From Branchiostoma floridae (taxonomy: Eukaryota > Chordata > Leptocardii > Amphioxiformes > Branchiostomatidae): a DNA stretch of 64,000 bases. Below are positions 57,771 through 60,426 of the stretch, piece after piece (position 1 is the first letter of the stretch; each line of letters starts with the position of its first letter). The DNA lies in contig NC_049987.1 of assembly GCF_000003815.2 (NCBI RefSeq), positions 1,007,605 to 1,071,604 on the forward strand. The letters run 5' to 3'. Below the pieces are notes generated by a model, which did no database searches, had not been told where the DNA came from, and saw only the letters and a program-made list of their open reading frames with translations. Made by a program: the position numbers and the translations under genes.

Positions 57771-58001
57771 ACAGGAGCAGCTGCACAAGTCCCAGCTCAG
57801 ACATGTGTGATACATGTTGTATGTTATTGACAGGAGCAGCACAAGTCCCAGCTCAGACATGTGTGATACATGTTGTATGTTATTGACAGGAACAGCACAA
57901 GTCCCAGCTCAGACATGTGTGATGCATGTTGTATGTTATTGACAGGAACAGCACAAGTCCCAGCTCAGACATGTGTGATACATGTTGTATGTTATTGACA
58001 G
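57771..58001 (+). repeat. Acceptor-anchored array 1: 56-bp unit
   Basis: ACAGG(A/G)(A/G)CAG starts at 57771, 57830, 57886 and 57942, before the true exon junction at 57998. Each unit is TTATTGACAG (acceptor), then GAACAGCACAAGTCCCAGCT, the first ~20 nt of the next exon, then a short CAGACATGTGTGATACATG spacer. The last copy leads into the full exon 58002-58185. Confidence 0.95.
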
Positions 58002-58698
58002 GAACATCACAAGTCCCAGCTGCGCCGCGGGCTCCAGGGTCTGCCCACGCCCAAGAACGACTTTGAGATCGTGATGCCCGAGGAGATGCCGCAGGACATG
58101 GGGACGGAGGTGGAACCGCACGCCAACCTCCGGCCTGACCAGTCTGACATCGACATGGCTGAACAGGCCAGGGTCAACGCAGAGAGTGAGTAATACTATG
58201 GGGTTTTATTATGTAGTTAAGAGTGCCTCCTTTCAGATTTCTTAAGAACTGCAGTCGTAAATTTGGGAAGGGTAAATGTGCTGACATGTATACTAGCATG
58301 GCTCAACGCAGAGAGTGGGTCACACATCTGAGGTATGATCATGTAGATACGAGTGCTCCCTTTCAGATTTTATCAGAATTACAGTCAGGTGTTTGTTGTG
58401 AATTTGTGCTCATTTCTAAAATGTATTTCCATGAAGTTCTTCAGAACAGAAAGTCTTGTTTGCATATTAACAGGGGAGCGAGAGCTGAAACGGCGCCATC
58501 ACGCTGTCCAGCGAGACCTGCCACGCCCCGCAGAACCCAACTCTTCCATCCTCCGTCCCTTCGTTATGGACCCACCGCTCACAGAACTACAGCTGGTATG
58601 GCAATTTCGCTACACACATAACATTTACATCTCAAACAGGCTTTCAGTTCTCTTATATATTTTGTTCAAGTAAAAGAAAAAATATAACATACTACGGC

Positions 58699-58798
58699 NN
58701 NNNNNNNNNNNNNNNNNNNNNNNNNNNNNNNNNNNNNNNNNNNNNNNNNNNNNNNNNNNNNNNNNNNNNNNNNNNNNNNNNNNNNNNNNNNNNNNNNN
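58699..58798. other. Assembly gap (100 N)
   Basis: It ends at the edge of acceptor-anchored array 2, so that array may be longer than shown. Confidence 0.99.
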
Positions 58799-59111
58799 TT
58801 CTGTGTAGGCTGAAGAGTTGATAAAGAGAGAGATAGTGACCATGTTACACCATGTGCTTTTGTACATGTAAGCTGAAGAGTTGATTAAGAGAGAGATGGT
58901 GACCATGTTACACTATGTGTTTTGTGTAGGCTGAAGAGTTGATAAAGAGAGAGATGGTGACCATGTTACACCATGTGTTTTGTACATGTAGGCTGAAGAG
59001 TTGATAAAGAGAGAGATAGTGACCATGTTACACCATGTGTTTTGTGTAGGCTGAAGAGTTGATAAAGAGAGAGATGGTGACCATGTTACACCATGTGTTT
59101 TGTACATGTAG
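58799..59111 (+). repeat. Acceptor-anchored array 2: alternating 58/62-bp units
   Basis: GCTGAAGAGTTGAT starts at 58809, 58872, 58930, 58992, 59050 and 59112. Steps are 63, 58, 62, 58 and 62. Each unit has (A)GGCTGAAGAG, i.e. AG acceptor plus the first ~45 nt of exon AEELIKREMVTMLHH, then GTGTTTTGTGTAG or GTGTTTTGTACATGTAG. The two spacer types alternate, giving a ~120-bp dimer. The last copy continues into the whole exon. Confidence 0.95.
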
Positions 59112-59383
59112 GCTGAAGAGTTGATAAAGAGAGAGATGGTGACCATGTTACACCATGATGCCATCTACAACCCTTCAGAAGAACAGGCTGCCGCGGCTGC
59201 AGGAGACAAGAAGAAAGGCGCCCAGTCAGCCGGCAACAAGATGGCAGAACAATCGCCTACCTGGAGGAATATCCGTACACCAAAATAGACGAGGACAGTC
59301 TGAATTTGGTAAGTACATTTTTGTAATATAGATTTGCACTGTAGTTTTGGTATTTCTTGCCAGATGGCGTTTCTTGCTAGATC

Positions 59384-59640
59384 CCTTCCCCAGGCTAAAG
59401 AACTGTTGTCCCATGAGATGGAGGTAGTGAAAACAGGGATTGGACATGGGGATCTGTCTGTAGAAGTGTTTTTGTACTGCAGTTTTGATATGTTTTGCCA
59501 GATGGCGCTAACAGTCTGCTCTCTCCCTTCCCCAGGCTAAAGAACTGTTGTCCCATGAGATGGAGGTAGTGAAAACAGGGATTGGACATGGGGATCTGTC
59601 TGTAGAAGTGTTTTTGTACCGCAGTTTTGATATGTTTTGC
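59384..59640 (+). repeat. Acceptor-anchored array 3: 142-bp duplication
   Basis: Two near-identical copies begin with CCCTTCCCCAG then GCTAAAGAACTG (exon starts 59394 and 59536). They include the exon AKELLSHEMEVVKTGIGHG and ~60 bp of following sequence ending in GATATGTTTTGCC. The second copy fuses directly into array 4 at about 59636. Confidence 0.95.
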
Positions 59641-60426
59641 CTGTATAAACAGCTACAGGAGATGCACGACCAGACAGAACAGACGTACATGTTTGTTGTT
59701 TACTGTTTGTGTGTTGTTTTCTACAGTCCCGAGCGACAGGCCTGTATAAACAGCTACAGGAGACCAGACAGAACAGACATACATGTTTGTTGTTTACTGT
59801 TTACTGTTTATGTGTTGTTCCCTACAGTCCCGAGCGACAGGCCTGTATAAACAGCTACAGGAGATGCACGACCAGACAGAACAGACGTACATGTTTGTTG
59901 TTTACTGTTTGTGTGTTGTTCCCTACAGTCCCGAGCGACAGGCCTGTATAAACAGCTACAGGAGACCAGACAGAACAGACATACATGTTTGTTGTTTACT
60001 GTTTGTGTGTTGTTTTCTACAGTCCCGAGCGACAGGCCTGTATAAACAGCTACAGGAGACCAGACAGAACAGACATACATGTTTGTTGTTTACTGTTTAC
60101 TGTTTATGTGTTGTTCCCTACAGTCCCGAGCGACAGGCCTGTATAAACAGCTACAGGAGATGCACGACCAGACAGAACAGACGTACATGTTTGTTGTTTA
60201 CTGTTTGTGTGTTGTTCCCTACAGTCCCGAGCGACAGGCCTGTATAAACAGCTACAGGAGATGCACGACCAGACAGAACAGACGTACATGTTTGTTGTTT
60301 ACTGTTTGTGTGTTGTTTTCTACAGTCCCGAGCGACAGGCCTGTATAAACAGCTACAGGAGACCAGACAGAACAGACATACATGTTTGTTGTTTACTGTT
60401 TACTGTTTATGTGTTGTTCCCTACAG
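59636..60426 (+). repeat. Acceptor-anchored array 4: 94/101-bp units
   Basis: CTACAG then TCCCGAGCGACAGG recurs with exon starts at 59727, 59828, 59929, 60023, 60124, 60225, 60326 and 60427; steps are 101, 101, 94, 101, 101, 101, 101. A partial first unit begins at 59636. Each unit holds the acceptor, 40-60 nt of exon [11 protein letters not shown], and an intron-like spacer ATGTTTGTTGTTTACTG. Two exon variants (GAGATGCACGACCAG or GAGACCAG) and two spacer lengths occur in different combinations. Only the 60427 copy continues to a full exon and donor. Confidence 0.95.

What the first reader, a model, noticed from the sequence alone, without database searches (positions are those of the whole stretch)
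57771..60426. Four neighbouring exons each amplified as acceptor-anchored minisatellites
In the CDC5L locus, arrays of 56 bp (x4), 58/62 bp (x6), 142 bp (x2) and 94/101 bp (x8) all have the same architecture: intron end, AG acceptor, first part of the exon, short spacer. Each array ends in the single copy that reads on into the complete exon. Different exons have unrelated unit sequences, so this is not one spreading repeat. Four independent tandem amplifications with breakpoints at the same functional position suggest a shared cause, such as slippage or repair templated around branch point/acceptor, or an assembly process. If transcribed, every unit offers a decoy acceptor. I know of no described precedent for four in a row.
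Basis: partly seen in the sequence, partly recalled or inferred. Interest (0 to 1): 0.85.

Follow-up and report, generated by a model that had tools for sequence, protein, structure and literature searches.

The report
Lancelet splice-boundary repeats in broken CDC5L
The stacked half-exon repeats are real, but they belong to a kind already described in lancelets ("mirages"), and here they sit in a damaged second copy of a splicing gene rather than in a normal one.

Summary
The four arrays exist: each unit joins an intron end and acceptor to the start of an exon, and 20 of 21 units keep AG. Three corrections. (1) Precedent: tandem repeats across exon/intron boundaries are published in amphioxus as "mirages". 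The window's own genome holds globin arrays agreeing with published BflGb6 and BflGb9, so it is Branchiostoma floridae or very close. (2) The locus is not a working CDC5L as it stands. It is a shortened, diverged copy of a fuller CDC5L 19 Mb away; it lacks 10 of 18 coding segments, has a stop in exon 1 and a 1-base deletion, and array 3 is cut and fused to array 4 at a 3-base overlap. (3) Acceptors are not singled out: the fuller copy has boundary duplications at 7 of 18 segments, 4 acceptor-side and 3 donor-side; breakpoints vary; and in a chaperonin sample exons carried local duplicates in 3 of 30 cases against 9 of 120 flanking segments. Best explanation: widespread tandem duplication, surviving where it crosses one splice boundary, then minisatellite growth. 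New members of a known kind.

The parts
53711..62607 (+). Whole stretch homologous to the fuller CDC5L copy at C9:20.10-20.12 Mb (about 9 kb here against about 26 kb there)
   Evidence: blastn; other matches of 120 bp or more are seven scattered, non-collinear rows
54285..54329 (+). CDC5L exon 1 (aa 1-15) with in-frame TGA at 54309-54311
   Evidence: the fuller copy has GGA
56993..57112 (+). Remnant of the exon for aa 51-104; only its end is in frame, the start is altered and lies close to a contig start
57747..58021 (+). Array 1, 56-bp units, five acceptors; single-copy in the fuller gene copy
57999..58184 (+). Complete exon for aa 469-529 at the end of array 1
58171..58386 (+). Donor-side duplication of the end of the same exon (58171-58256 and 58300-58386, 78%)
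   Evidence: the corresponding pair in the fuller copy is 306 bp apart
58479..58592 (+). Exon for aa 532-569, without the 54-bp donor-side array of the fuller copy
58802..59157 (+). Array 2, 58/62-bp units, six acceptor positions (five AG), starting at an N gap; two units in the fuller copy
59112..59306 (+). Exon for aa 571 onward with a 1-base deletion at 59251/59252
59333..59641 (+). Array 3, 142-bp units, two full copies and the start of a third, truncated; three copies with complete exon in the fuller gene copy
59639..59641 (+). Join of array 3 to array 4 at shared GCC; the coding part for aa 657-724 is missing
59639..60488 (+). Array 4, 94/101-bp units, eight acceptors, with a three-unit higher-order pattern
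60424..60555 (+). Complete exon for aa 725-768 at the end of array 4
61278..61373 (+). Last matched coding piece, aa 770-801

Best explanation
These are amphioxus 'mirage' minisatellites in a degraded duplicate of CDC5L. Short tandem duplications arise widely in this genome, by slippage or microhomology-based repair (inferred). A duplication inside an exon usually breaks the protein; one that crosses a single splice boundary leaves one working site attached to a complete exon, puts the partial copies on the intron side, and can survive (inferred filter). The seed then grows and homogenises by unequal exchange (inferred from higher-order repeats and copy-number differences between the two gene copies). 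Arrays 2-4 are in both gene copies and so probably predate the gene duplication; array 1 is multi-copy only in the window. The window copy stayed under selection for most of its divergence and later lost exons, in one place through a join between arrays 3 and 4. Shown: arrays, fuller copy, lesions in the assembled sequence, boundary duplications on both sides. Inferred: mechanism of duplication, the filter, how splicing ignores decoys.
For: Arrays and acceptors. Fuller copy 19 Mb away on the same contig, 18 segments from aa 1 to 801; homology confined to the gene. Arrays 2-4 there with 2, 3 and 7 units, array 1 single, plus three donor-side and one further acceptor-side duplication. Units homogenised separately in each copy. 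Published mirages of the same anatomy and arrays agreeing with BflGb6 and BflGb9 in this genome. Same anatomy in a kinesin gene. Duplicates not more frequent at exons than in flanking DNA. pN/pS about 0.11 between the copies over seven exon pieces.
Against: The fuller copy is itself broken at its 83-bp array as assembled: about 17 residues (human 224-240) are absent and a TGA follows, so assembly errors at arrays, or two damaged copies, remain possible. The purifying-selection signal in the window copy sits uneasily with so many lesions. Exact junction microhomology was established for one array only. Two of the three CCT duplicates are weak matches (E 5e-4 and 1e-4). No RNA or read data.
Confidence: 0.8

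Rival explanations
1. Assembly artefact: missing exons, the array 3/array 4 join and perhaps some array copies are mis-joins or mis-counts; the true locus is a normal CDC5L duplicate or a misplaced alternative haplotype.
Against: Both edges of the homologous stretch lie inside gap-free contigs and the flanks are unrelated to those of the other copy; a 3-base overlap is an unlikely assembly join (general knowledge); stop, 1-base deletion and synonymous divergence of 0.17 exceed what alleles usually show (recalled).
Confidence: 0.13
2. A mechanism aimed at the acceptor or branch point, duplicates intron end plus exon start.
For: Four of four named arrays, the kinesin array and the BflGb6-like array are acceptor-side.
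Against: Three donor-side cases in the fuller CDC5L copy, donor-side BflGb9-like duplication, two donor-side of three CCT cases; intron part 12-64 bp and exon part 20-78 bp; no excess over flanking DNA.
Confidence: 0.04
3. The window copy is a living second CDC5L gene with altered exons, and the arrays serve a regulatory role in its splicing.
For: pN/pS about 0.11 over seven pieces.
Against: Stop in exon 1, 1-base deletion, eight segments missing in a gap-free stretch, aa 657-724 missing.
Confidence: 0.03

Closest known systems
Amphioxus 'mirages': Adh3, troponin C, globins BflGb6 and BflGb9 (PMC3087553 and PMC3902484, passages seen; the Adh3 and troponin C papers themselves not seen)
   Same: Tandem repeats of tens to about 160 bp spanning an exon/intron boundary, on acceptor or donor side, with the genuine exon at one end; copy number varies; same genome by the globin test
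   Different: Several neighbouring exons of one gene, and two diverged gene copies carrying the same arrays at different stages
PGBD5 lancelet 60- and 108-bp duplications over splice sites (PMC3902484, passage seen)
   Same: Short tandem duplications that include splice sites in a lancelet gene
   Different: Few, imperfect copies; not in a degraded gene copy
Intron gain by duplication of splice-site-containing segments (model discussed in PMC3087553, passage seen)
   Same: Tandem duplication places extra splice sites inside a gene
   Different: No new intron position is shown here

Membership tests
Amphioxus mirage minisatellites | Tandem units contain part of an exon, its splice site and adjoining intron | tested here: met
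Amphioxus mirage minisatellites | Genuine complete exon at one end of the array | tested here: met
   Arrays 1, 2 and 4 in the window (array-2 exon with a 1-base deletion); array 3 only in the fuller copy
Amphioxus mirage minisatellites | Found in a cephalochordate genome | tested here: met
   Globin arrangement and two globin arrays agree with published B. floridae ones; the published 8-Mb spacing of BflGb6 and BflGb12 was not confirmed
Amphioxus mirage minisatellites | Copy number varies between copies of the locus | tested here: met
   1/5, 2/6 and 7/8 units for arrays 1, 2 and 4 in fuller copy/window, array 2 open at an N gap and array 4 truncated in the window; gene copies, not alleles
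Amphioxus mirage minisatellites | Normal splicing despite decoy sites | not testable with these tools
   No RNA data; reported for Adh3 and globins in PMC3087553
Amphioxus mirage minisatellites | Somatic instability (Adh3) | not testable with these tools
   No reads
Functional CDC5L gene (window copy) | Complete open coding sequence | tested here: not met
   10 of 18 segments absent, stop in exon 1, 1-base deletion
Alternative haplotype of the fuller CDC5L locus | Collinear homology continues beyond the gene | tested here: not met
   94 kb against 130 kb: collinear only at 53711-62607

The most novel reading that the evidence does not exclude
Mirage arrays are breakage sites that remove exons: in both CDC5L copies a coding stretch is missing at a join with a few bases of overlap (GCC in the window; GAT, read by eye, in the fuller copy) whose one end, or both, lies in a boundary array. 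If real, these tolerated repeats would be a standing source of exon loss and gene death in lancelets.
Probability: 0.2. Interest if true: 0.55.

Novelty: new member of a known kind. Interest (0 to 1): 0.35.

Why it matters
It puts a seemingly unprecedented pattern under a published name and adds a usable test system: two diverged copies of one gene carrying the same boundary arrays at different stages, from which one can read how such arrays start, grow and perhaps end in exon loss. It also warns that single-exon matches in lancelet genomes can be partial decoys, and that assemblies may fail at these places.

Tried and rejected
Rejected: acceptor-specific mechanism. Rejected: misplaced haplotype of the other locus, because flanks are unrelated. 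Rejected: dead since the gene duplication, because pN/pS is about 0.11.

Weak or led nowhere: junction microhomology was found exactly only for array 4 in the fuller copy; the 20-bp figure printed for array 2 is an artefact of the match seed, arrays 1 and 3 gave none by script, and ATG (array 2) and GTGTTT (array 3) are by eye only. Copy number of the far upstream homologous piece 53711-54002 could not be searched. In one search one exon row was misframed and the array-3 row was not scored; both are dropped from the pN/pS figures. The list of 134 kinesin matches was checked for repeated profile intervals by eye only; one cluster was seen. The control of 200 random window segments includes the CDC5L arrays themselves. 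A promoter, RNA-family, protein-family or structure search was not run.

Papers: PMC3087553 seen as passages, PMC3902484 as one passage. The Adh minisatellite paper (cited there, PMC117041) is not held. Paper searches: seen as listings; for CDC5L with amphioxus, one search gave 3 papers, of which I saw titles and abstract starts only. I therefore do not claim that mirages in CDC5L are unpublished. Recalled, from no call: the few-per-cent allelic divergence of B. floridae, the species behind the PDB chains, and that assemblers do not join on three bases.

Full report
WHAT IS THERE. The four arrays are real: 56-bp units at 57747-58021, 58/62-bp units at 58802-59157, 142-bp units at 59333-59641 and 94/101-bp units at 59639-60488. 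Cut at the acceptor they give 5, 6, 2 and 8 positions; 20 of 21 keep AG, the second unit of array 2 having AA. Units of different arrays are unrelated. Array 2 starts at a 100-N gap. Array 3 does not end in a complete exon: its third copy runs to TTTTGCC and continues inside the exon part of an array-4 copy, with GCC shared (59639-59641).

THE LOCUS IS A PARTIAL CDC5L. Human CDC5L (typed, then checked against 5mqf_L) matches the window at aa 1-15, 76-104, 469-529, 532-569, 571 onward, 629-657, 725-770 and 770-801. Exon 1 has an in-frame TGA, and the aa-571 exon a 1-base deletion. The start of the aa 51-104 remnant is altered; for example the W of QWRTIAP, present in the five CDC5 chains aligned, is L here, but this lies within 85 bases of a contig start. 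Residues 105-468 find no match although no N lies between 57105 and 57999; part of that space (57242-57580) is a dispersed repeat with 41 other rows listed in this genome (40 of 1870 candidates scored). Residues 657-724 are absent at the array 3/array 4 join.

A FULLER COPY EXISTS. The window is C9:1,007,605-1,071,604 of a genome of 513,431,437 bases in 431 contigs, and the aa 469-529 exon has one other match, on the same contig at 20.109 Mb, 95% identical. That locus (about C9:20.101-20.117 Mb, minus strand) matches human CDC5L in 18 segments from aa 1 to 801. The window copy lacks 10 of these 18, one of which could be in an N gap, and truncates 2. A protein search of the genome listed 18 matches: 13 at the fuller copy, 4 at the window copy and 1 weak one on C2. 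Homology is confined to the gene: 53711-62607 is collinear with about 26 kb there, and in 94 kb against 130 kb the other matches of 120 bp or more are seven scattered, non-collinear rows. Over seven in-frame exon pieces there are 29.5 synonymous differences in 171.5 sites and 11.5 non-synonymous in 584.5 (summed; the misframed row and the array-3 row dropped): pS 0.17, pN 0.02. So the copies are old compared with alleles (recalled figure), yet the window copy was constrained for most of that time and its lesions are late, or partly errors. The fuller copy is not flawless: at its 83-bp array human residues 224-240 (17 residues) have no counterpart and a TGA follows.

THE ARRAYS IN BOTH COPIES. 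In the fuller copy array 1 is single, array 2 has 2 units, array 3 has 3 and reads into the complete exon, and array 4 has 7. It also has an 83-bp x3.4 and a 54-bp x4.7 array on donor sides, an old donor-side pair 306 bp apart and an acceptor-side pair 641 bp apart. So 7 of 18 segments carry a boundary duplication, 4 on acceptors and 3 on donors (sides read from sequence, no transcripts). The old donor-side pair is in the window too (58171-58256 / 58300-58386, 78%). In array 4, window units 1, 4 and 7 are identical over the 96 bp compared, as are 2 and 5; in the fuller copy units 1, 4 and 7, and 2, 3 and 5, are identical among themselves and differ from the window's: homogenisation after the copies parted.

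NOT AIMED AT THE ACCEPTOR. The intron part of a unit is about 36, 12/16, 64 and 38 bp and the exon part about 20, 46, 78 and 63 bp (counted): no fixed breakpoint. In array 4 of the fuller copy the junction has an exact 6-bp microhomology, ACGTAC; the script found none for arrays 1 and 3. As a base rate, 3 of 30 chaperonin (PF00118) exon matches had a partial duplicate within 1.5 kb, all three at an edge of the match, 1 acceptor-side and 2 donor-side; two of the three are weak. The 30 are the best-scoring of 60 matches and include some long open frames. By the same measure 9 of 120 flanking segments of those loci and 29 of 200 random window segments had one. Exons are thus not enriched; a filter on a high general rate of tandem duplication is enough to explain where they survive. 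A kinesin gene on C2 shows the same acceptor-side architecture (151 bp, three copies, the last complete).

PRECEDENT. Such repeats are published in amphioxus as 'mirages' (passages of PMC3087553; of PMC3902484): Adh3, troponin C, globins BflGb6 (150-160 bp, acceptor side) and BflGb9 (157 bp, donor side). The globin paper reports that regular splicing seems undisturbed, that both boundaries can be duplicated, that BflGb6 haplotypes differ in copy number, and that the draft genome's BflGb6 array was wrongly assembled. In the window's genome the globin matches include a pair 4 kb apart with a third 290 kb away and a head-to-head pair 42 kb apart, close to the published arrangement (276 kb; 40 kb); one globin has a donor-side duplication 157 bp apart and another a 158-bp x4.2 array before its exon. 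The published 8-Mb spacing of BflGb6 and BflGb12 was not confirmed. This makes the genome Branchiostoma floridae or a very close relative and places the finding in a known kind.

MECHANISM. Shown: arrays, their other state in the fuller copy, boundary duplications on both sides, background rate, lesions in the assembled sequence. Inferred: seeds by slippage or microhomology repair; survival because a duplication across one splice site leaves a complete exon with a working site; growth by unequal exchange; loss of aa 657-724 by a deletion between arrays 3 and 4. An assembly error remains possible for the deletions, less so for the arrays. The boldest reading left open is that mirage arrays are themselves where exons get lost.

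Noticed in passing
57242-57580: Dispersed repeat of about 338 bp sitting in the stretch where eight coding segments are missing; 41 other rows listed genome-wide, 40 of 1870 candidates scored.
   Followed up: partly
21150-22293 and 32822-33800: Other large tandem arrays in the window (225 bp x5.1 and 244 bp x4.0), not examined for coding overlap.
   Followed up: no
1237-1673: GC-rich 48-bp tandem repeat (x6.6), not examined.
   Followed up: no
62379-62608: 60- and 85-bp tandem repeats in the 3' flank, a part that is also homologous to the fuller copy's flank.
   Followed up: no
60650-60870: Inverted-repeat-like stretch (CAGACGTTTCGGTGAC and its near complement) in the last intron, seen by eye.
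   Followed up: no
L004 (C9:20106001-20116000), in the fuller CDC5L copy at about C9:20112573-20112853: 83-bp x3.4 donor-side array whose first unit joins exon sequence abruptly, with human residues 224-240 missing and a TGA after the join.
   Followed up: partly
L053 (C2:31967301-31968300): Acceptor-side array of 151 bp, three copies, over the ATP-loop exon of a kinesin gene, the last copy complete.
   Followed up: yes
L042 (C11, CCT chaperonin gene): Donor-side copy of the end of an exon in the following intron, 97% identical over 29 bp and extending into the donor.
   Followed up: yes
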